This document shows positions 182-10,882 of a stretch of DNA of 10,979 nucleotides, in pieces. The notes under the pieces are model-generated. The model saw only the letters and a list, made by a program, of their open reading frames with translations, had not been told where the DNA came from and did no database searches. The translations under genes were made by a program, and so were the position numbers. Within the stretch, counting starts at the first letter, position 1, and each line of letters starts with the position of its first letter. Location: positions 1 to 10,979 of the forward strand of contig JAHFHC010000027.1 in the NCBI GenBank assembly GCA_023247085.1. The letters are read 5' to 3'. This DNA is from Microcaldota archaeon (GTDB lineage Archaea; Micrarchaeota; Micrarchaeia; Norongarragalinales; UBA8480).

Positions 182-210
182 GCGAAAAAAAATAAGTGCT
201 ACTTGTTTTT
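182..210 (+). other. 5' arm of the pre-23S rRNA processing stem
   Basis: This arm is the near-perfect reverse complement of 4760-4788, just past the 3' end of the gene. GCG (182-184) pairs with CGC (4786-4788). A run of A (186-192) pairs with a run of T (4779-4785). TAAGTGCTACTT (193-204) pairs with AAGTAGCGCTTA (4767-4778) with one G-U pair. The T-run 206-210 can continue against the A-run 4760-4764. Stems that enclose the whole rRNA are the standard archaeal precursor structure, usually carrying a BHB cut by the splicing endonuclease. I did not find a clean 3-4-3 BHB inside this one. Confidence 0.85.
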
Positions 211-2161
211 CGACGCCATTTAGTGAATGGTTAGGCTTGAGTAGCGATGAAAGACGCGGCAAGCTGCGAAAAGCCACGGGTAGCCGCATGCAGGCATTGA
301 ACCGTGGGTATCTGAATAGATCCGAAAGGATTGCGTACTTCCTGAATTGAAATATCTTAGTAGGGAGAGGAAAATAAATCAAATCGAGATTCTGTTATTA
401 GTGCGAACGAAAGCAGAATAGTGCAAACTGAATTCGCCCCGCAAGGAGGCGTAGATGTGGTGTTTGGCCTCGTTTTTAACACTCAAATATCTTAGCTGAA
501 GAGAACTGGAAAGTTCCGTGCTACAAGGTGATAGCCCTGTAAGCGTAGGTGTTTGAGGTGTACGAGTGTCCCGAGTAGCGTTTCCTGGTTTGGAAGCGCG
601 AACGCGCGAGTATTAACTTGCAACGCTAAATATAACTCAAGACCGATAGTGAATTAAGTACCGAGAGGGAAAACTGAAAAGAACCCCGAAAGGGGAGTTC
701 AAAGTGCCTGAAACTAAATGGTAACAATAAGGCGCGGCGTGAAAGGATCTCCGCAAGGAGAACCAGCGTTGCGCCCTACTTCTCGAAGCAAGAGCCAAGG
801 AGTTCACGAGAGTGGCGAGTACTATACGTAGGGAAACCAACGTCTCCGCAACACCTGCAAAGGTGCCAGGGAGAGGGTCTTAACCGGCCATTAGTCACTA
901 TTGTGAGACCTGAAGCCCATGCGATCTATGCCCGAGTAAGACGAAGCCGACCTACAGGTTGGTGGAGGTCTGCAACCGTTTCTGGTTTATCCGATCGGGT
1001 GACTCGGGTTTAGGGATGAAAGTTCATTCGAGCTGGGCATTAGCAGGTTCCTTCCGAAGTGTCCCGCAGGACAGCCTCGTTGGAGCCGAACACTAGGTAG
1101 AGCGACCGATCAGAAGGAAAGGGGAGTAAAATCCTCACCGTCTTGTCGAACTCCGAAGCTAGCGTTGGCATAGAAGACGAGAGTTGGGATGTACGAGGTA
1201 AGCGCGTACTCCTGGAGGGGAACGACCCCTACTACAGTTAAGGTCCCAAAGACTGGCTAAGTGTAAACAAAAGGTGTTTTGATTCTCAGACAGTGGAGAG
1301 GTAGGCTCAGAAGCAGCCATCCTTTAAACAACGCGTAACAGCGGATCCATCAAGAATCGAAGCGCTGCAAACTATCGGGACTAAAGCCAGTTACCGATAC
1401 TGTGGAACTACAGCGACAACTGTAGATTTGGTAGGAGGGCGTACTGTTCGGGCCGAAGCTCGTTCGTGAGGACGAGTGGACTGAATAGTAATGAATATCT
1501 TGGTATTAGTAGCATCAATTTGGAGCGAGAATCTCCAACGTCGGAAGGGCACGGGTTTCTTGGCAACGCTAGTCGACCAAGAGTAAGCCGATCCTAACGC
1601 TACACGTAACGGTGATTTAAAGCGGAAAGGGAAACACGTTAATATTCGTGTGCCGTACAGCAGCATGTGGCAACACTAGCTTGTATTAGACGCTTGCGGA
1701 TAAGTTTAGCGCATTGATTCCTTAGTGCGTTTAACCAGCATAGGACAGAGAAGTCTTGTTATGAGGAGCATCTGTTCAAGATGGGAAAAATAAACTTAAT
1801 CCATGAGCCCCTGAAAACAATACAAGAAGCGCGCTGTGCGATCGTACCTAGAACCAGTACAGGTGCCCCTGGCAGAGAAAGCCAAGACGTGGCAGGAAAA
1901 CCAAAGCAAGGGAACTCGGCAAGCTAGCCCCGTAACTTCGGGAGAAGGGGTGCCTACATTTTTTTCTGAGATTATATCAAAGATGGACTTGTAGGTCGCA
2001 GTAACAAGGGGACGTCGACTGTTTATCAAAAACACAGCTCTCCGCAAGATGGAAACGTTTTGTACGGAGGGTGACGCCTGCTCACTGGCAGTATCTGAAG
2101 TTGGGTTTCAACCCAGCGAAGGACTGCTAAAGAGCGGGTCTAACTCTGAGACTCTTAAGGT

Positions 2162-2870
2162 AAAATTACGATTTGCCTTATCAAAATCGGGCTATATGCT
2201 GGAAAATCTGGAGTATCTCAAACTATCACTGGCAATGACGTGTTGCACTTTGTTTAAAAAGCAAAGATCAGATACGTAGCTGTGATAACAATGTTATGAG
2301 CGCAGACAATCAGCAGGAAAGACTAGATGCAGAGTGGATTGTTGGATTCGTCGACGGAGAAGGATGTTTTCATGTAAGCTTAAACAAGCTAGAGAAAATG
2401 TCCACCGGTTGGACGGTTCTTCCTGAATTTAGAGTGGTGCAGCATCAACGTGATGAGCAAGTGCTTTACAGAATCAAAAAATATTTTGGTTTTGGAATAG
2501 TAACCGTTAATCATGGTGATCGAAAAGAATTTCGAGTACGTGGTTTGAAAAATTTGAATTTAATCGTTCAATTTTTTAAACAGTATCCATTGCAAACTTC
2601 CAAACAAAAAAATTTGGAAAAATTTGCAGAAGTTTTATCGATCATAGACGCAAAGCAACACCTAACAAAGGAAGGACTTGATAAAATCGCTGAAATAATT
2701 TCAACGATGAATCGGAAACCAATTCCACAGTATTTAGAATCCTCAGAGACTATACGCCTGACAGCTGAAAAAAAGCTGAAGATATAGTCCGACCTGCATA
2801 GCGATATGCAGAAGCCAACAGAAATGTTTTGGCTCCGCGAGTTTTTTTAAAATCGCGAGTAACAAACGTG
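2162..2870 (+). mobile_element. group I intron at 23S position 1931, with endonuclease gene
   Basis: The intron is 709 nt, starts after a U and ends in G, as group I introns do. P1 is exact: exon TTAAGGT (2155-2161) against intron GCCTTA (2175-2180), with the U-G wobble at the splice site. P10 is ATTACG (2165-2170) with 3'-exon CGTAAT (2873-2878). P3 is TCGGGC (2187-2192) with GCCTGA (2756-2761). P4 is TGCTGG (2197-2202) with TCAGCA (2310-2315). P5 includes GTATCT (2213-2218) with AGATAC (2270-2275). P6 is AGGA (2315-2318) with TCCT (2740-2743). P7 is GACTATA (2748-2754) with TATAGTC (2783-2789). P8 is CAGCT (2762-2766) with AGCTG (2774-2778). P9-type hairpins lie at 2794-2811, 2813-2834 and 2836-2857. 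The S box AAGATATAGTCC is textbook. The endonuclease gene sits in the P6 loop. Group I introns occupy the same site in Thermotoga 23S, and archaeal group I introns have been described. Confidence 0.93.
2296..2787 (+). CDS. LAGLIDADG homing endonuclease (one motif), encoded in the group I intron
   Basis: This 163-residue protein has one LAGLIDADG motif near its N-terminus, WIVGFVDGEGCF (residues 14-25), with the expected catalytic acid at E22 followed by a beta-strand-like stretch. One-motif enzymes of this size (I-CreI also has 163 residues) act as homodimers. They cut intron-less copies of the gene so that the intron is copied in, and some also help the intron fold (maturase). The frame starts at ATG 2296, inside the ribozyme core between the P4 strands. 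Its first codons encode the 3' strand of P4 and the 5' strand of P6. Its last 13 or so codons encode P6', P7, P3' and P8, and the TAG stop lies inside the S box. No Shine-Dalgarno sequence is seen. The frame is intact, so the enzyme may be active. The target would be the joined exon sequence around 2150-2161/2871-2885. Confidence 0.9.
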   Translation: MSADNQQERLDAEWIVGFVDGEGCFHVSLNKLEKMSTGWTVLPEFRVVQHQRDEQVLYRIKKYFGFGIVTVNHGDRKEFRVRGLKNLNLIVQFFKQYPLQTSKQKNLEKFAEVLSIIDAKQHLTKEGLDKIAEIISTMNRKPIPQYLESSETIRLTAEKKLKI

Positions 2871-3388
2871 AGCGTAATACCTCGCCGCTTAATTGGCGGC
2901 TCGCATGAATGGCGTAACGAGCGTCCCACTGTCCCTGCTTTGGACCTGGTGAACTTACTACCCGGTGTACATGCCGGGAACTTCTAGGGGGAAACGAAGA
3001 CCCCATGGAGCTTAACTATAGCCTGTAGTTGATTCACGGTTGAAGCTGCAAAGCGTAAACAGGAGCCGTTATGCCGTACCTTCTGGGGTGCGGATAGGCG
3101 AAAGTGTGACACTGTTCTGTTTTGACTGCGAGTCTTACTTCTCCTTGTTTGGAGAAAGACAACTACAGGTGGATAGTTTGACTGGGGCGGTACGCCTTCG
3201 AAAAAATAACAAAGGCGCCTAATGGTCAGCTCAAGCGGGTTAGAAATCCGCTGTAGAGGGTTAAAGACAAATGCTGGCCTGACTGTGTTCTTAACAAAAT
3301 GGAACGCAGACACGAAAGTGGGGCTTAACGAACAAAGGTATCTCCGTTAATGGGAGTCCTTTCTGACAGACAAGCTACCCTGGGGGTA

Positions 3389-4073
3389 ATTTCGTTTTCA
3401 ATCCGTAAAATCATCGGCAACGACGTGTTGCTCAAAACTTTAAATGCTGTGCTTGCTTTGCAACTATATGAATCCAGATTTCGCTTATTTACTAGGCGCA
3501 TTTGGCGATGGTTGCTTATACATAAATAAAGCAAGAGGCGAGTACTGCATTGAGTACGAGCAAAAAGTAGCAGTTTGGCTTACTAACTCAATTTTGCCTA
3601 GATTTCAAAAAGTCTACGGTAAAAGTCCACGAGTTAAACAACGCAAAGCAAAAGGCGAACTTTATCGAATACGCGTATATTCCAAGCAAGCTTTTTTTGA
3701 AATAAAAGAAGCTATGCAAAATCTATCCATTCTCTTGCAAGAAGATCTCCAAGTGAAAGCATTTTTCATAAGGGGATTTTTTGACGCAGAGGGAAGTGTT
3801 CCAGCCAGAAGGCCAGGAACATCTCGTATAGAATTGAAATATACCAAAAAGATACGTCGAAACTTGCGCTAATAGCGCAGATGCTCGAAGACGACTTTGG
3901 AATAGTTTCTAATAAATTAACTAATTCCAGAAACGTTGGCCAATTGAACATACGCACTGTGCAAAACATTGCACGTTTTCGTAGTCGCATTGGTTCAGAG
4001 CATCCAGCAAAATTCAAAGCTTTAAATGAATTGTTTTAATATGCTGGTGATGGATTGAAACTGAGAACCTTAT
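3389..4073 (+). mobile_element. BHB (archaeal-type) intron between 23S A2450 and A2451
   Basis: The 685-nt intron shows a canonical 3-4-3 bulge-helix-bulge. Outer exon helix: CCTG (3379-3382) with CAGG (4075-4078). Central helix: GGGG (3383-3386) with CCTT (4068-4071), including two G-U pairs. Bulges: TAA (3387-3389) and ATA (4072-4074). Cleavage after the second base of each bulge joins GGGGGTA to ACAGG, which restores the conserved peptidyl-transferase sequence. The inner helix starts with TTT (3390-3392) against GAA (4065-4067). After a small irregular loop it continues as a perfect 9-bp stem, TTTCAATCC (3396-3404) with GGATTGAAA (4052-4060). Such introns are removed by the archaeal tRNA splicing endonuclease and joined by RtcB ligase (established for the class). 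No group I core or terminal G is present. The intron carries a broken LAGLIDADG gene. Confidence 0.9.
3444..4039 (+). pseudogene. I-DmoI-like LAGLIDADG homing endonuclease (two motifs), frameshifted
   Basis: The first frame (3444-3872) contains motif 1, YLLGAFGDGCLYI (residues 15-27, acid D22), and motif 2, FIRGFFDAEGSV (residues 108-119, acid E116). These positions closely match the D21/E117 pair of I-DmoI from an archaeal 23S intron. After about residue 126 the frame leaves the family pattern and stops early. The rest of the second domain continues in the -1 frame from about 3830 to the TAA at 4037-4039, beginning RIEIYQKD and ending KALNELF. Together the parts give about 198 residues, the size of a full enzyme. 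A single missing base between about 3800 and 3832 explains this. No slippery heptamer is seen, so programmed frameshifting is unlikely; sequencing error remains possible. The start could be 3444 or 3468 (MNPDFAYLLG). The enzyme is probably inactive, as expected of an intron that is fixed in its host. Confidence 0.87.
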
Positions 4074-4100
4074 ACAGGCTCGTCGCGCCCGAGAGTTCAT
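4074..4100 (+). other. 27-nt micro-exon of 23S rRNA (E. coli 2451-2477)
   Basis: This exon runs from the peptidyl-transferase adenosine A2451 to U2477, including the 5' strand of helix 89 (CGCGCC, 4084-4089, which pairs with GGCGCG, 4355-4360, after intron 3). Its length equals the E. coli interval exactly. It is flanked on both sides by BHB introns, so both must be removed and ligated correctly to rebuild the catalytic centre. Confidence 0.88.
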
Positions 4101-4348
4101 TTTTCATGAACGATCGGGGAAACCACGAGTTCAAGTCTTCGTTTCTTCTTTTCGAAAAGTTGCACTAGTTGCAACTACTAAAAGTGGTTTTCTCTAGTGT
4201 TAACTTTAGGAGGAGTAGAAACGCAGAACTTGAACCTAATATAATCGTGGTATCTTCGTTCGTCTCCAAAAAACTCGGAATCGTAAAAATTCTGCAGTTT
4301 ATTTGGGAAAAAAAGCATCGTAAAAAATGCTTTTTTTTGATAGAATAT
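4101..4348 (+). mobile_element. ORF-less BHB intron after 23S position 2477
   Basis: The 248-nt intron interrupts helix 89. A 3-4-3 BHB can be drawn. The central helix is exon GTTC (4095-4098) with intron GAAT (4343-4346), one G-U. The bulges are ATT (4099-4101) and ATA (4347-4349), cut after the second base, giving GAGTTCAT joined to ATCGACGG exactly as in other 23S genes. The outer side has AG (4093-4094) with TC (4350-4351), then tandem G-A mismatches, then the helix 89 stem. Inside is a long rod: ACCACGA (4122-4128) with TCGTGGT (4245-4251), GTTCAAG (4129-4135) with CTTGAAC (4229-4235), and CGTTTCT (4140-4146) with AGAAACG (4217-4223). It is capped by the hairpin 4158-4164/4170-4176. An 11-bp hairpin (4308-4318 with 4327-4337) ends in a run of eight T. 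No plausible protein is encoded. Confidence 0.82.
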
Positions 4349-4759
4349 ATCGACGGCGCGGTTTGGTACATCGCTATCGGCTCGACTTATCCTGGTGGTG
4401 CAGGAGCCACCAAGGGTTGGGTTGTTCATCCATTAAAAAGTCACGTTAGTTGGGTTCAGAACGTCGCGAGACAGTTCGGTGGCATCTCCTAGAAGTGCAT
4501 TGCTGGCTGAGGGTAAGACTCCCTAAGTACGAGAGGAACGGGGAATCGGCGCCGCTAGTTAAGCTGTTGTCAAAAGGATTCAAATGGCACGCAGCATAGC
4601 CACGCGCTCTTCGAATAAGTCCTGAAAGCATCTAAGGACGAAGTCGGTCCCAAAACGAGCCAGCTTAGACCGCCCATAGCAGATGGGTTTGATAGAACTG
4701 AAGTGTAAACCAGGAGCTTCGGCGACTGGCGAGCTAACAGTAACTAAAGGTCAAATCTA

Positions 4760-4788
4760 AAAAACTAAGTAGCGCTTATTTTTTTCGC
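4760..4788 (+). other. 3' arm of the pre-23S processing stem
   Basis: This arm pairs with 182-210 as described for the 5' arm. It contains a run of seven T (4779-4785), followed by further T-rich sequence (4791-4794). Archaeal RNA polymerase stops at such runs, so the arm could also lie at or just before the transcript end. The cut that frees the mature 3' end must lie between about 4753 and 4788. Confidence 0.82.
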
Positions 4789-5011: not shown

Positions 5012-5584
5012 CTAGGTTTTGTGCTTTTCTAAATATTTTTCCGCCATTAGCAGCGCAGCGATTGACGTAGCGTATTGTAATTTGCGTTTTTTAATTAACG
5101 CTGGAACGTCTTTAAATTTTGTGCGTATTACTTTCAACTCTTCAGGCTCATCGCCTTGAAGTTTGCTTGGAACCAAGTTTGTACCTAAGTAAATTTCAGT
5201 AGAGTGAGTTGAGTAACCTGGCGCAGTTTCAACTGTGCCCAAGTGCACTAATTTTTTTGGTAAATATCCTATTTCTTCTTGGCACTCGCGCTTCGCTGCT
5301 TGTAAAGCTGTTTCGCCTTTGTCAACTAATCCAGTTGGGCACATGACTTCGCGTTTGTTTACGCCAGTGCAATAGAGTTCAATTAATAAAATTCTTCCAT
5401 TTTTATCAACTGGCACTATAACTACGCTTCTTCTACCGTTGCCAGTTGCAGAGTCCATGTACTCGTGCTTTACTTTTTTTCCATTTGGAAACTGCAAACC
5501 TATTGAATGGATGGAAAACACTTTTCCCTTTGCGACGATTTTGTGGTTTAGGATATTTACCATGTGCGTATAAGAATAACCCAT
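5012..5584 (-). CDS. Nudix hydrolase, probable ADP-ribose/ADP-sugar pyrophosphatase
   Basis: This 190-residue soluble protein has a complete Nudix box at residues 85-107: G85, E91 and the R99-E100-x-x-E103-E104-x-G106 core, which binds the metal ions and catalyses pyrophosphate cleavage. The segment TAPGYSTHSTEIYL (120-133) downstream, and the LQGDEPEEL stretch (142-150), resemble ADP-ribose pyrophosphatases and NudE-type ADP-compound hydrolases. The likely reaction is nucleoside-diphosphate-X to nucleoside monophosphate plus phospho-X, in the cytoplasm. Such enzymes clear ADP-ribose and related dinucleotides; the exact substrate is inference. The start at 5584 (MGYSYTH) has no Shine-Dalgarno sequence, and M8 at 5563 is an equally good alternative. 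The gene lies 74 nt downstream of scpA, with no obvious functional link. Confidence 0.9.
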   Translation of the reverse strand: MGYSYTHMVNILNHKIVAKGKVFSIHSIGLQFPNGKKVKHEYMDSATGNGRRSVVIVPVDKNGRILLIELYCTGVNKREVMCPTGLVDKGETALQAAKRECQEEIGYLPKKLVHLGTVETAPGYSTHSTEIYLGTNLVPSKLQGDEPEELKVIRTKFKDVPALIKKRKLQYATSIAALLMAEKYLEKHKT

Positions 5585-5658: not shown

Positions 5659-6369
5659 TTACAATATTTTTATTTTGATTTCGCCGTATGTTTGTTCTTG
5701 CCAAATGTCTGCTTTTCTTTCTTGCACTAGATGTAGTAGTGGCATTAGCCTGCTTGCAACGTGGCCGTTTTTGTCTTTGTTTAGCGAATTAGGGTCAAGT
5801 AATAAAGAAAATGCAAGTACTCCGTCTTTATCTTTTAATTCATTTGCCAATAAGTATAGTTTTTTTATTAATTCATGCAAGTCTTCTTTTGGCAATTGAA
5901 GTTCAAGTATTTTTGGTGCAATTGTAAGTAGTTGCTGTGTGGTTGTTGAACTGATTACGTCGTCAACTGCTTTGACTAATTCTTCTAGTGTAACTTTGCG
6001 TGAACGTGCATTGTTCGTGCGTAGTATTAATTGTGGAATTTCTTCTGGGATTAATTCGCGCGGCATAGGCTCTTCTAGTTGAAAGTCCTCTTCAAATTTA
6101 TCTTCAAGTGACAGCGCATCGGCTTTAAAACGTAAGAGTAAACTAGTTGCGAGTATGACATTAGCTGGTAAACGTAAGTCAACTGCTGCAAGTTCTTTTA
6201 CTTTTTGTAAGTACTTATCTGCAATTACGCCGATGTCTAAGTCCCAGGGGTTCATTTGGTTTGAATTTACTAAGTCAAGTAATACTTCGCGCCACGTTGG
6301 TTCTAAAACTAGTGTTTCCAAATCTAAATTAGAGGAGGTTACTTGTAATTGGGTGGTCTCGTCTTCCAT
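5659..6369 (-). CDS. scpA: ScpA, kleisin subunit of the SMC chromosome condensation complex
   Basis: This 236-residue protein matches the archaeal and bacterial ScpA family. The N-terminal domain, which binds the SMC neck, includes the hallmark NPWDLDI (residues 40-46) and the helical segment ILATSLLLRFKADAL (72-86). An acidic linker follows (about 88-112). The C-terminal winged helix carries LMPLLHLVQ (208-216) and a QEQTYGEIKI ending (224-233) and would contact the SMC head. ScpA bridges an SMC dimer into a ring that compacts and helps segregate the chromosome. No smc or scpB gene is in the window. The ATG at 6369 fits the family N-terminus; no strong Shine-Dalgarno sequence is seen. The 73-nt gap upstream holds a good TATA box, so the gene probably has its own promoter. 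Confidence 0.92.
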   Translation of the reverse strand: MEDETTQLQVTSSNLDLETLVLEPTWREVLLDLVNSNQMNPWDLDIGVIADKYLQKVKELAAVDLRLPANVILATSLLLRFKADALSLEDKFEEDFQLEEPMPRELIPEEIPQLILRTNNARSRKVTLEELVKAVDDVISSTTTQQLLTIAPKILELQLPKEDLHELIKKLYLLANELKDKDGVLAFSLLLDPNSLNKDKNGHVASRLMPLLHLVQERKADIWQEQTYGEIKIKIL

Positions 6370-6442: not shown

Positions 6443-9400
6443 TTATTGCTTCGGCCTTTTTTGTTTTTTTATCCTAATTGCTGTGACTGCGGCAATCGTT
6501 GCGAGAATTGCGAGTATCAGTGCGGGTAATTCAGTTGGCCATCCGGGTAGTGATGCAAATCCATTTGACCCGCTTATGCGTTTGTTGGTTGGTAGCAGTA
6601 AATTGCTGCCCGGGTTTCCCATGAAGTTTCCATTTGAGTCTCGGCTAAGCCGTTCGCCGTCAGTTGCAAACCGTGGATTCATTGCCAGGTCTTGTCCATT
6701 TAACCCATATAATTGACCGGTTTGAGGGTCGTATACTAGTATTCCGCCTGTTCCTTTTGCTTTTAGCAGTTCTTCAAGTCCTTTTAATTCATCTGGTCCG
6801 CTGTATGATAATTGTGGTTGGCCATTTTCTCCCATACCGATGTTGAATTTGAAGTCGCCTTTGTCAGTTGGTATAACGATGTCGTTTCCTTCGCGGCGCA
6901 GTGGGCCAGTGATTGGATAATCGTGTATTTCGCCGGTTTGTTTGTCAATCACTCTTAATATGGGGTTACCGTTCGCATCTTTAGTGATCATAAATTGTTT
7001 TGTAGGCGTGTCTAAAATGTGCATTCCGCTGCAACCTTGAATTGCGTCAAGTGCAGATTGTAATTCCGCAGCTGCTGCATCTCCTACTCCGGCGTGTCCT
7101 TCTACGCGTGTTATTTTTATTCCAGGTAAACCGTCCGAGCAATCATTGCGCTGTACTGGCGCAGTGCCGAATCCTTGAATTAAACCTGCGTCAACTTGTG
7201 CTAAAGTGTGTATGAATATTTGTACTTCGCCATTTGCCAAATAGTTTATTTTTCCACGTTCAGTTAAAATTGAACGTAGTTCGCCAGCATTCGCTGCTTC
7301 TGGAGAATCCGAGTGAATATATCCTTGCAATGTTACTCTCCCGTCGCTTGTTACGTCAATTGCAGCTGCTTGCTTGTAATTTTCTTCTTGAGAAGAAGTA
7401 GCTTTTTGCATTACTTCGTTGCCTGGGCTGCGTAGTTCAAATTCATCCTTAACTGCGGAATTGCGGCTAAATATAATTACGCCGTTGCTGAAGTCAAGCG
7501 AACCATCAGTGGTATATACTTGTGTCACTCGGCCGAGTACGCTGGTCAAATCACTTCCAATTTGCCTGCCAGTTGCATATTGTATTTGACTGCGGATACA
7601 ACTTGCGCCAGCACATGTTGCACCAGCTGCTAGTGTTATGCTTTGCTTTGCATCCATCTCTAAAACGTTTCCAGCACAACCCGCAAACGAGGCAGTTACG
7701 TATTTATTCGGAATTAATGTAAGCGCTAAATTGTTCATTTGCTTGTGGTTTAGTGAACGGTCGCTATTTGCTATTTGAGTGCATACTCCCGTTTTTTTAT
7801 CGCATAGCCTAACGCCGTCCTTATCAAATTCAGCTGCTTTGTTATCCGAGTCAAGCACTTTTCTCAATGGACACATGTTCGGCTGCTGGCTTGTAGCAGC
7901 AAAATCAGTTGGAATCCATTCTCTAGTTGCATCTTTGAGTTGCAAGTAATAAATTTTATCAACAACTAAATGCGAAGCTTGATTTTCCAATTCTCCGCGT
8001 AAATTAACATATTCGCGTAATCTAGTTGTGTCAACAGGTTGGCCAACTCCGCTTATTGCCTTGCCTAAATTTAAGTTGCTTAAAACGTCATTTGAACTAA
8101 CTGACTTTAATTTTTCAGTTAATTCTCCGCTAGTTTTGTGCTTCAAGCTTTGATATGCTAAAATGGTGTAATGGTCGTCCTTGCAATTAGATGCGTATTG
8201 AAGTGCTTCTGAAGCAAAGTGACCTTGCACTAGCGTAGTTGGAGAAAGCGCGCCACTGATTAACGTTACTGTCTTTTCTAACTTAGGCCAATAACCTATT
8301 TTTCTCATAATTGTCACTGCACTTGTAGTTGCCCCTTTTTTCACTTCGAATACGGTTTTAGCTATGGGCAGCCACCCTACTAATTGATTTGCAGCTGTTG
8401 CAGCAATGTATTTGTTAATGTTGCTATCGACAACTTTTGGATCACATTTTTCATCTGGTTTAGTCTGAGCCGGATTAATAGCTTCTCTAATATAAAAGTC
8501 ATAAACTACTAGTCGAACTGCGGTTAGTGACGCGTCGCTTAACCCACTTAATTTCCACGAAATAAGTGGCGCTATTAAATTAAGTGCAGCATAAAACCCT
8601 TGGAATTCTTTACGCGCTTTTATTTTAAGTGACCAACTTGCATCTTTCACTTCAATTGGCAACCGGGCATATTCGTCTTTAGAACTAAGTTGCTCGGCTA
8701 TCAGTATGTCTGATTTTCCTTTCCAACTAGATTCGATTTTTGTTTGTCCATTTTGTGTTCTAAAACTAGTTATTGAATTAGCTCCGGTTCCAGGCGCTCC
8801 TTCAAGTGGTTGGTTAGCAATCCATAAGTTACCAACTTGATACGCTGCGCTTGGAATGCCCTCATCAGTAAAATCAGATAAAGCATCAGTAACCGTTCCT
8901 GCAGAAACCCAGTCAGTTGCCCGCCTGAATTCACCGATTAAATCATTGTTATTGGCAAAAACCGTTATGTAATTATCTGCATATTGCTTTTGGCTTATGC
9001 GCTGGAAAGTAATAGCATCGGTGATTTCAAATACAAATCGCCCTGGCCCAAGCCAACCCATTCCTAATACTAGCCGGTACCAAACCTCTCCTGTACGCGC
9101 AGCCAGTAGTTTTTTGATTTTATTCAAGTCAGCCGTGTACTCTTGCCCTGCAAGTTCGTTCAATGTTTTCGTTGAATCAATTTCAAGCCGGCTTCTAACT
9201 TGTGCTTTTGTAACCTCTGCAGACTCTAATGCATCAAATCCTCCAGTAGTTTTTGTAAAGTCAGCTTCGTATTTTCTATAAATGCTGCTTACATCAGCAG
9301 CAGGCGCAGCAGTTGTTGGTATCTCGCTCCTTACTTTTTCAATTGCCGCATAACGTGATGCAAATTCCGACGAACTTGTTTTTAGCGCAGGTATATCTGC

Positions 9401-10495
9401 GATTGTAAGGTGGTGTGCACTTCCAGCTGGGGTGAATTCTTCAAGCAACCCGTTTTCTATTTTTGTTAAACTACTTTCCAATTGAGATTTGCTTATAGTG
9501 GGTGCGCTTCCAAGCCCGTATATCTCTCTTTTTAGAGGCGTGCTAGTAACACGGCTAAATGTAATTGAGTCTGGAGCAAATTGTTGTTTTCTTGTTTCAA
9601 TTTCTTTTAACTTCTCTTGCGCGCTTGTTAATGTACCGACTTTTCCAAAGAAGAAACCCATTTGGGCAACTGTCAACCACGTGTCTAGACTAACCCATGT
9701 TTTTAACCGCTTTACTGTTTCTTCATACTGCTTTGGCAAAACTAATGTAGATGCGCCTTGCAAGTCTAAGTCATTAACCGCATCAGTTGAACCTATTCCG
9801 TTTTGAACCCCTTTTAAATTTGGCGCGCCGCTATACGCAACGGTTACATCTTTAGAAAGCGAACCGACGTATGAAACTTTTCCGGTTATGTGTTGGCTAT
9901 CAAGCAAACAAGCGGCATTTGGATTATCTGGTGCAGTTGAATCTTGAAGTGCAGAAAGTGGAATCTCTCCACCTGCGTTTGTACGAAGTTTATAGCCCTC
10001 AAAAGCAGGATTTTCTTCACTTGGCGAACCCTTTAATTGCGAAAGTAAATCAGCCACGCCAGCGTCATTCTTAAAACGTTTAGCAATATCGCGCGCTTCA
10101 GCATCAGTTATACGGTCAGTTGGCTTTTTGTTCAAATACGCGGCAGCGGCTTTTTTCTGTTCTTCATCAAAACCCATTAACGTAGTTGCAGTATCTAGCG
10201 GGTATACTCCTTCTGTTTTACTGCCGATGAATATATTGTTAACCACTTGAGATGGCTTGTTTTGAATCTCTTCATTGCCACTTAACCCATTTACTTGGTC
10301 GCCCCTAAAGCCCTGAACTTGTTGCCAGAAGAACATCGTTTGTTCAGGCGTCATTTCATTTAATTCACAAATGCCGCGAACATCAAACGGCGAGCTTGGC
10401 GTAGCTGTATTGGTTAAAGCAAATGTAAATGGCGCAAATAATTCAACTACAAACGCCATTAGTAAGAAAATGCTGGTTTTACGTCGGTAATCCAT
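6443..10495 (-). CDS. very large secreted, C-terminally anchored protein of unknown function
   Basis: I do not recognise this 1350-residue protein. Residues 1-26 form a signal peptide: a charged start (DYRRK), a hydrophobic core (SIFLLMAFVVELFAPF) and a likely cut after TFA. The C-terminus carries LPGWP (1316-1320), one hydrophobic helix (about 1323-1340) and a basic tail (RIKKQKRPKQ). The bulk would therefore face outward, held by a single membrane anchor. Residues 30-650 look mainly alpha-helical and polar, with charged helices such as that near 295-305. Hydrophobic or amphipathic stretches occur near 475-490 and 630-650. About a dozen cysteines are spread along the chain and denser at 680-960 and 1118-1160 (for example CDKKTGVC near 898-905 and CAGASC near 957-962), suggesting disulfides. 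The 1160-1310 part is rich in D-x-N/G-x-G turns and beta strands (DANGNPILRVIDKQTGEIHDY). A surface, adhesion or envelope role is only inference. The ATG at 10495 is fixed by the signal peptide. Confidence 0.9.
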   Translation of the reverse strand: MDYRRKTSIFLLMAFVVELFAPFTFALTNTATPSSPFDVRGICELNEMTPEQTMFFWQQVQGFRGDQVNGLSGNEEIQNKPSQVVNNIFIGSKTEGVYPLDTATTLMGFDEEQKKAAAAYLNKKPTDRITDAEARDIAKRFKNDAGVADLLSQLKGSPSEENPAFEGYKLRTNAGGEIPLSALQDSTAPDNPNAACLLDSQHITGKVSYVGSLSKDVTVAYSGAPNLKGVQNGIGSTDAVNDLDLQGASTLVLPKQYEETVKRLKTWVSLDTWLTVAQMGFFFGKVGTLTSAQEKLKEIETRKQQFAPDSITFSRVTSTPLKREIYGLGSAPTISKSQLESSLTKIENGLLEEFTPAGSAHHLTIADIPALKTSSSEFASRYAAIEKVRSEIPTTAAPAADVSSIYRKYEADFTKTTGGFDALESAEVTKAQVRSRLEIDSTKTLNELAGQEYTADLNKIKKLLAARTGEVWYRLVLGMGWLGPGRFVFEITDAITFQRISQKQYADNYITVFANNNDLIGEFRRATDWVSAGTVTDALSDFTDEGIPSAAYQVGNLWIANQPLEGAPGTGANSITSFRTQNGQTKIESSWKGKSDILIAEQLSSKDEYARLPIEVKDASWSLKIKARKEFQGFYAALNLIAPLISWKLSGLSDASLTAVRLVVYDFYIREAINPAQTKPDEKCDPKVVDSNINKYIAATAANQLVGWLPIAKTVFEVKKGATTSAVTIMRKIGYWPKLEKTVTLISGALSPTTLVQGHFASEALQYASNCKDDHYTILAYQSLKHKTSGELTEKLKSVSSNDVLSNLNLGKAISGVGQPVDTTRLREYVNLRGELENQASHLVVDKIYYLQLKDATREWIPTDFAATSQQPNMCPLRKVLDSDNKAAEFDKDGVRLCDKKTGVCTQIANSDRSLNHKQMNNLALTLIPNKYVTASFAGCAGNVLEMDAKQSITLAAGATCAGASCIRSQIQYATGRQIGSDLTSVLGRVTQVYTTDGSLDFSNGVIIFSRNSAVKDEFELRSPGNEVMQKATSSQEENYKQAAAIDVTSDGRVTLQGYIHSDSPEAANAGELRSILTERGKINYLANGEVQIFIHTLAQVDAGLIQGFGTAPVQRNDCSDGLPGIKITRVEGHAGVGDAAAAELQSALDAIQGCSGMHILDTPTKQFMITKDANGNPILRVIDKQTGEIHDYPITGPLRREGNDIVIPTDKGDFKFNIGMGENGQPQLSYSGPDELKGLEELLKAKGTGGILVYDPQTGQLYGLNGQDLAMNPRFATDGERLSRDSNGNFMGNPGSNLLLPTNKRISGSNGFASLPGWPTELPALILAILATIAAVTAIRIKKQKRPKQ

Positions 10496-10530
10496 AGTAG
10501 TTCTTCAACTAAATAACAAGGCGTTTTTGC

Positions 10531-10540
10531 TTTTTAAACC
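10531..10540 (-). promoter_or_regulatory. probable TATA box of the large secreted-protein gene
   Basis: On the minus strand GGTTTAAAAA lies about 40 nt before the ATG at 10495, in a 111-nt gap. The expected start site would leave a leader of roughly 15 nt. The match is good for an archaeal TATA, but the assignment is by eye. Confidence 0.45.
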
Positions 10541-10606: not shown

Positions 10607-10882
10607 TCAAGGTGTTGAAAAAACTTGTGGTAAAGTATAGCCAAGGTAAAATTCAATTATAACAACTGTAACTAATGTTGCTAGAAAAGTGCAAATCAAC
10701 ATCCATAGTATCTTTGGCGTTTTAGCGTGCCTTTTTTCTAAATAGTCATACACAAACGAAAATACAACTACAAGCGGAAATGCAAGTAGGCTCACAATCA
10801 AAGAGAAGAGCAAAACGAACCACGCTTGAGTTAAGAATGCCGAAACGTCCACCATAATAGTTGTCTTACGCTTTTCCAACAT
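10607..10882 (-). CDS. small two-helix membrane protein of unknown function
   Basis: This 91-residue protein begins with a basic N-terminus (LEKRK). A first hydrophobic helix covers about residues 19-45 and a second about 58-82, separated by a basic loop (LEKRHAKTPK, 48-57). By the positive-inside rule the N-terminus would be outside or shielded and the basic loop cytoplasmic; the basic N-terminus makes the topology ambiguous. A stop codon directly before ATG 10882 excludes a longer form; M10 is a possible later start. No family is recognised. It lies upstream of the giant secreted protein on the same strand, so a link to envelope function is possible but unproven. Confidence 0.7.
   Translation of the reverse strand: MLEKRKTTIMVDVSAFLTQAWFVLLFSLIVSLLAFPLVVVFSFVYDYLEKRHAKTPKILWMLICTFLATLVTVVIIEFYLGYTLPQVFSTP

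What the first reader, a model, noticed from the sequence alone, without database searches (positions are those of the whole stretch)
6443..10495. 1350-residue surface protein of unrecognised family
It has a signal peptide, about a dozen cysteines, a turn-rich beta region and a single C-terminal helix with a basic tail. It takes up over a third of the window in what looks like a small genome, so it must matter to the cell. It may be an envelope or cell-contact protein.
Basis: partly seen in the sequence, partly recalled or inferred. Interest (0 to 1): 0.6.

Follow-up and report, generated by a model that had tools for sequence, protein, structure and literature searches.

The report
Giant pilus-linked archaeal surface protein
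A very large exported, membrane-anchored protein, found in essentially every genome of one order of tiny archaea (Micrarchaeota) and in none of their sampled relatives, sits beside an equally order-specific set of type IV pilus genes and is probably an envelope part of that pilus machine.

Summary
The ORF is real and lies on the MINUS strand (6443-10495). It is 1350 aa with an N-terminal export signal, 12 cysteines, one C-terminal membrane helix and a basic tail. It matches nothing in Pfam, NCBIfam (beyond noise), PHROGs or PDB sequences, nor in phages or plasmids. Purifying selection is strong (dN/dS 0.06-0.09).

It is no orphan. A profile finds it in 28 of 29 genomes of its Micrarchaeota order and in 0 of 272 other genomes of the class. 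In at least 11 genomes from five families it is encoded next to a type IV pilus locus: secretion ATPase, TadC-like platform, pilin-like proteins. Two of those pilin-like families have the same order-only distribution. In the window's genome that locus is on another contig; both contigs end where the usual junction would lie.

Best reading: a membrane-anchored, disulphide-stabilised accessory of a lineage-specific pilus, probably an envelope scaffold or collar. It resembles the large C-terminally anchored 'S-layer-like' proteins reported in Thermoproteales pilus loci. The ectodomain avoids N-glycosylation sequons (0 against 9.5 expected). Pilus linkage is well supported; the collar role is inference. 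AlphaFold2 failed (pLDDT 31-32), so the fold is unknown.

The parts
6443..10495 (-). The finding: 1350-aa exported, C-terminally anchored protein; order-specific family
   Evidence: ORF; orthologues in 28/29 order genomes, 0/272 others in the class; dN/dS 0.06-0.09; no known family
10418..10495 (-). N-terminal signal peptide, residues 1-26 (MDYRRKTSIFLLMAFVVELFAPFTFA)
   Evidence: Hydrophobic peak residues 9-27, KD 2.29; a similar N-terminal peak in every orthologue of alignment A1; Ala-X-Ala-like end in alignment A1
6476..6532 (-). C-terminal transmembrane helix, residues 1322-1340
   Evidence: KD 2.19, family mean 2.24
6536..6550 (-). Conserved LP[S/A/G]WP-like motif just before the TM helix (residues 1316-1320, LPGWP here)
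   Evidence: P12, P15 and R36 of the C-terminal alignment are at least 90% conserved; motif not found in other proteins of these genomes
6446..6475 (-). Basic tail, residues 1341-1350 (RIKKQKRPKQ)
   Evidence: Sequence
6443..7873 (-). Conserved C-terminal portion, residues 875-1350; cysteines 875, 940, 961, 966
   Evidence: C875 in 18/18, C961 in 17/18, C940 and C966 in 15/18 orthologues; both 940 and 966 absent in the same three aligned sequences
10607..10882 (-). 91-aa membrane protein, conserved upstream neighbour of the giant gene (CL2)
   Evidence: Homologue found at 10 of 16 loci compared, upstream of the giant gene on its strand; no Pfam match above cut-off

Best explanation
An exported, type I membrane-anchored accessory component of an order-specific type IV pilus (T4P) system. 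SHOWN by sequence: export signal, one strong C-terminal TM helix with a basic tail, conserved cysteines, single copy, purifying selection, gene adjacency to the T4P locus in at least 11 genomes, and the same phylogenetic distribution as two pilin-like families of that locus. INFERRED: the protein is exported by Sec, disulphide-stabilised outside, and held by its C-terminal helix. INFERRED and less certain: it stands beside the T4P ATPase/TadC platform and acts as an envelope-side scaffold, collar or stator through which the filament is assembled and anchored, by analogy with the large C-terminally anchored 'S-layer-like' proteins of Thermoproteales T4P loci.
For: Distribution: 28/29 genomes of the order and 0 of 272 others in the class; pilin-like families CL5 and CL6 have the same profile (27/29 each; outside the order two borderline hits for CL5, none for CL6). 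Adjacency: coordinates put the gene (or its N-terminal fragment at a contig end) within about 4 kb of CL5 in G003, G004, G007, G008, G009, G013, G014, G017, G022, G024 and G027 (families f1-f5). Locus content: T2SSE ATPase (PF00437 3.5e-19; 1.3e-17 in G000), T2SSF/TadC-like protein (weak, 1e-4), class-III-signal pilin-like proteins; prepilin peptidase PF01478 in the own genome. In G000 the locus is at C20:39240-51663 and its contig ends inside CL3, while the window contig ends 97 bases beyond CL2, as expected if the usual CL3-CL2-giant order is cut by a contig break. Purifying selection. Precedent: Makarova, Koonin and Albers 2016, PMC4858521.
Against: Not adjacent to the pilus locus in G010, G026, G012 and G015, so linkage is common but not obligatory. 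Adjacency in the window's own genome is not proved. A shared order-only profile could reflect one ancestral gain without shared function. No homologue of any characterised T4P accessory part was detected, and no usable structure was obtained. Two genomes outside the order carry related ATPases (G142, G127) without a recognisable giant beside them (hhalign against the nearest large protein, probability 0.3%).
Confidence: 0.6

Rival explanations
1. Pilus- or surface-borne adhesin that makes the contact with a partner cell; the pilus locus is its presentation device.
For: Large exported protein by T4P genes; in the T4P loci of methanococci and relatives two large DUF2341 proteins were proposed as tip adhesins (PMC4858521); the best-studied Micrarchaeota attach to hosts (PMC5498576, PMC8975820).
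Against: Very low dN/dS along the whole length (0.02-0.17 in windows); no recognisable adhesion domain such as PKD, laminin-G or DUF2341; a permanent C-terminal membrane anchor suits a fixed base component better than a tip.
Confidence: 0.2
2. General S-layer or envelope protein of the order, linked to the pilus locus only by history.
For: Size, export signal, C-terminal anchor, one copy per genome, universal in the order. A Micrarchaeon has an S-layer (PMC8975820).
Against: Co-occurrence and adjacency with pilin-like genes in five families. N-glycosylation sequons are avoided: 77 against 192 expected over 19 orthologues, 0 against 9.5 in this protein; apparent cytoplasmic ORFs give 0.75 of expectation and some other giant exported proteins 2.4-2.5 times expectation. 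Archaeal S-layer proteins are commonly glycosylated (general knowledge).
Confidence: 0.12
3. Not exclusive with the above: substrate of an archaeosortase-like enzyme; the LPxWP-TM-basic tail is a dedicated sorting signal exchanged for a lipid or other anchor.
For: Tripartite C-terminus; one TIGR04178 exosortase/archaeosortase-family gene in the own genome (40 bits against cut-off 23), 4 kb from the pilus ATPase, and one near the locus in G014.
Against: The motif occurs only in this protein, not in a set of substrates; the sortase is not next to the locus in several other genomes; a simple membrane anchor explains the same features.
Confidence: 0.2

Closest known systems
Large C-terminally TM-anchored 'S-layer-like' proteins of Thermoproteales T4P loci (e.g. 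arCOG05471; Makarova et al. 2016, PMC4858521)
   Same: Encoded in T4P loci, exported, single C-terminal TM helix, conserved cysteines; other components of the locus also cysteine-rich
   Different: Different lineage; sequence homology to arCOG05471 could not be tested here; whether those proteins avoid N-glycosylation sequons was not examined
Archaeal type IV pilus systems (secretion ATPase + TadC + class III signal pilins)
   Same: ATPase, platform-like protein, class-III-signal pilin-like proteins and a prepilin peptidase are all present
   Different: CL4-CL7 have no significant family match; CL5 and CL6, the two tested across the class, are confined to this order; the giant protein is an added component
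PEF/PGF-CTERM archaeosortase substrates
   Same: Short motif, TM helix, basic residues at the extreme C-terminus; an archaeosortase-family gene exists in the genome
   Different: Motif is LP[S/A/G]WP-like and occurs in a single protein per genome; no known CTERM model matched

Membership tests
Archaeal type IV pilus system (the locus) | T2SSE/VirB11-type secretion ATPase | tested here: met
   PF00437 3.5e-19 in G007 and 1.3e-17 in the own genome
Archaeal type IV pilus system (the locus) | TadC/T2SSF platform protein | tested here: inconclusive
   PF00482 at 1.1e-4 and 1.5e-4, just under the curated cut-off; multi-TM, follows the ATPase gene
Archaeal type IV pilus system (the locus) | Pilins with class III signal peptide | tested here: inconclusive
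   Several ORFs begin with a [K/R]-[G/S/A]-Q motif followed by a hydrophobic helix; no Pfam pilin model matched
Archaeal type IV pilus system (the locus) | Prepilin peptidase in the genome | tested here: met
   PF01478 above cut-off at G000:C35:3244-3600
T4P-associated large C-terminally anchored S-layer-like protein | Encoded in or beside a T4P locus | tested here: met
   11 genomes in five families; contigs broken in the own genome
T4P-associated large C-terminally anchored S-layer-like protein | Export signal, single C-terminal TM helix, conserved cysteines | tested here: met
T4P-associated large C-terminally anchored S-layer-like protein | Sequence or fold homology to arCOG05471 | not testable with these tools
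   arCOG models not held; AlphaFold2 pLDDT 31-32
S-layer glycoprotein | N-glycosylated ectodomain | tested here: not met
   By sequence only: 0 sequons against 9.5 expected in the window protein; family 77 against 192
S-layer glycoprotein | Forms the main surface lattice | not testable with these tools
   Needs imaging or proteomics
Archaeosortase CTERM substrate | Tripartite C-terminal motif-TM-basic signal | tested here: met
Archaeosortase CTERM substrate | Signal shared by several proteins, or a cognate sortase always beside a single target | tested here: not met
   Motif unique to this family; sortase location variable

The most novel reading that the evidence does not exclude
A lineage-specific pilus machine of one Micrarchaeota order in which an unglycosylated giant membrane-anchored protein forms a gate or collar in the envelope, so that the pilus can reach a partner cell: an order-specific attachment or exchange device.
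Probability: 0.15. Interest if true: 0.75.

Novelty: new variant of a known kind. Interest (0 to 1): 0.45.

Why it matters
It turns an anonymous giant ORF into a testable component of a pilus system in a group of archaea for which host contact is a central open question, and it gives candidate marker gene families for that order. It also shows a split within one order between exported giants enriched in N-glycosylation sequons and one that avoids them.

Tried and rejected
Pfam, NCBIfam, PHROGs, PDB sequences, phages and plasmids: no match; the FlgF hit in NCBIfam (E 0.0035, 17 bits against cut-off 421) is noise. Viral contigs: no relative in four scans. Orthologues fetched through the genome search were not handed to the structure predictor because its stated rule does not list them. 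Large protein beside a related ATPase in G127: not detectably homologous. A wider CTERM protein set: none. Simple phage or plasmid origin: no support. Zero sequons as a general composition effect: the reversed motif is at expectation, though apparent cytoplasmic ORFs are also mildly depleted (0.75) and so is the ATPase (5 against 12.6), so the effect is real but partly background.

Full report
Observation. The ORF at 6443-10495 is intact on the minus strand, 1350 aa. It starts with a signal-like hydrophobic segment, has 12 cysteines and ends with a transmembrane helix and basic tail. The window is the whole of contig C2 of a 0.89 Mb, 92% complete genome, with an archaeal 23S rRNA gene at 199-4766. 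The only named relatives found are two contigs of 'Candidatus Micrarchaeota archaeon isolate nzgw34', 93-94% identical. Against them dN/dS is 0.086 over residues 1-685 and 0.056 over 770-1349, between 0.02 and 0.17 in every 150-codon window. It is therefore a real protein under strong purifying selection.

Known families. Nothing significant in Pfam, NCBIfam, PHROGs or PDB sequences (for PDB and Pfam also with the 19-member set), and nothing in phage or plasmid records. AlphaFold2 could be run only with the window protein and one close relative and failed on both segments (pLDDT 32.3 and 31.2), so nothing is claimed about the fold.

Distribution. A profile of 19 orthologues (A1; 23-44% identity to the window protein) finds the protein in 28 of 29 genomes of the order; the one without is a 61%-complete assembly. 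It is absent from the other 272 genomes of the class, and the phylum search returned 301 genomes with the same result. It is single copy wherever it lies on one contig, 1249-1791 aa. An LP[S/A/G]WP-like motif precedes the membrane helix. C43, C196, C684, C771 and C875 are in all 18 full-length rows; C961 in 17; C940 and C966 in 15, missing in the same three sequences, which suggests that these two pair.

Neighbourhood. All-against-all comparison of 16 loci showed that, of the window's neighbours, only the one upstream is conserved. Reading toward the giant gene, the order elsewhere is: secretion ATPase; TadC-like platform; short class-III-signal proteins (RGQAFETMMLVIS); CL13; CL7 (cysteine-rich, pilin-like start); CL4; CL5; CL6; CL3 on the opposite strand (membrane segments plus a zinc-ribbon-like end); CL2 (window 10607-10882); giant gene. 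The ATPase matches PF00437 at 3.5e-19 in G007 and 1.3e-17 in the own genome, the platform PF00482 at about 1e-4. A prepilin peptidase is present in the own genome. CL5 and CL6 profiles hit 27 of 29 order genomes each; outside the order only two borderline CL5 hits at E about 8e-4 appear. From coordinates the gene, or its N-terminal part at a contig end, lies within about 4 kb of CL5 in eleven genomes: G003, G004, G007, G008, G009, G013, G014, G017, G022, G024, G027, spread over five families. In G010, G026, G012 and G015 it is elsewhere. Downstream neighbours here (scpA, NUDIX) are ordinary and not part of the conserved set.

Own genome. The pilus locus is on C20:39240-51663; CL3 runs off the end of that contig, and the window contig ends 97 bases past CL2. 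This fits a contig break inside the usual arrangement but is not proof.

Glycosylation. The window protein has no N-x-S/T sequon where shuffles give 9.5; in twelve of the 18 full-length proteins at most 2.4% of shuffles have so few, while the reversed motif is at expectation. The six that are not depleted in this way are L033, L039, L007, L042, L043 and L045. Pooled over 19 rows: 77 against 192. Fifty-two apparently cytoplasmic ORFs from these loci give 0.75 of expectation, so part of the effect is background; the four ATPases, which are close homologues, give 5 against 12.6. Other giant exported proteins in G010 and G026 carry 115 sequons against 45-48 expected, although a large exported protein in G014 is also depleted. 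Sequon avoidance suggests that the ectodomain is exposed to an oligosaccharyl transferase and kept unglycosylated, which is unlike a typical S-layer glycoprotein. Whether AglB is present in each genome was not tested.

C-terminus. The motif, helix and basic end look like a CTERM sorting signal, and one TIGR04178 archaeosortase-family gene lies 4 kb from the pilus ATPase in the own genome. No other protein in these genomes has the motif, so a plain membrane anchor remains the simpler reading.

Interpretation. Makarova, Koonin and Albers (PMC4858521) describe exported proteins with a single C-terminal TM domain and conserved cysteines in Thermoproteales T4P loci, some of them large, which they call probably S-layer-like; Makarova et al. 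(PMC6393860) note that DPANN T4P loci contain unrecognisable components. The giant protein matches that kind in location and architecture. I therefore commit to an accessory, envelope-side component of an order-specific T4P system (0.6). The collar or stator role is inference by analogy; adhesin (0.2) and general envelope protein (0.12) are the main rivals.

Limits. Orthology rests on profile searches; the order is unnamed in these tools. Neighbour functions other than the ATPase rest on weak matches or signal-peptide appearance. Adjacency counts use draft assemblies.

Noticed in passing
window 199-4766 (+); ORFs 2296-2787 and 3444-3872: Archaeal 23S rRNA spans 4568 bases for a 2987-position model, with two LAGLIDADG ORFs inside (PF00961 4.7e-28 and PF14528 6.6e-6), so it very likely carries introns.
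   Followed up: partly
L092 4741-8517 (own genome, contig C20): The pilus secretion ATPase gene of the window's genome is interrupted by an intein (PF14890 1.1e-23, LAGLIDADG_3 3.4e-15); ATPase ORFs of similar extra length occur in G013, G015 and G017.
   Followed up: partly
L092 278-844 (own genome, contig C20): Exosortase/archaeosortase-family gene (TIGR04178, 40 bits) near the pilus ATPase; class-wide search shows 27 of 29 order genomes have one or two.
   Followed up: partly
L080 1020-7808, L081 2215-8085: Other giant exported proteins in G010 and G026 have about 2.5 times the expected number of N-glycosylation sequons, opposite to the finding.
   Followed up: partly
L158 5745-12275: 2176-aa protein with export signal, late TM helix and C-terminal zinc ribbon a few kb from a related pilus ATPase in another order (G127); not detectably homologous to the finding.
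   Followed up: partly
window 10530-10539 (-): GTTTAAAAAG stretch about 40 bases before the giant gene's ATG, a possible archaeal TATA box.
   Followed up: no
window 5659-6369 (-) and 5012-5584 (-): ScpA-family (PF02616) and NUDIX (PF00293) proteins downstream on the same strand; ordinary.
   Followed up: no
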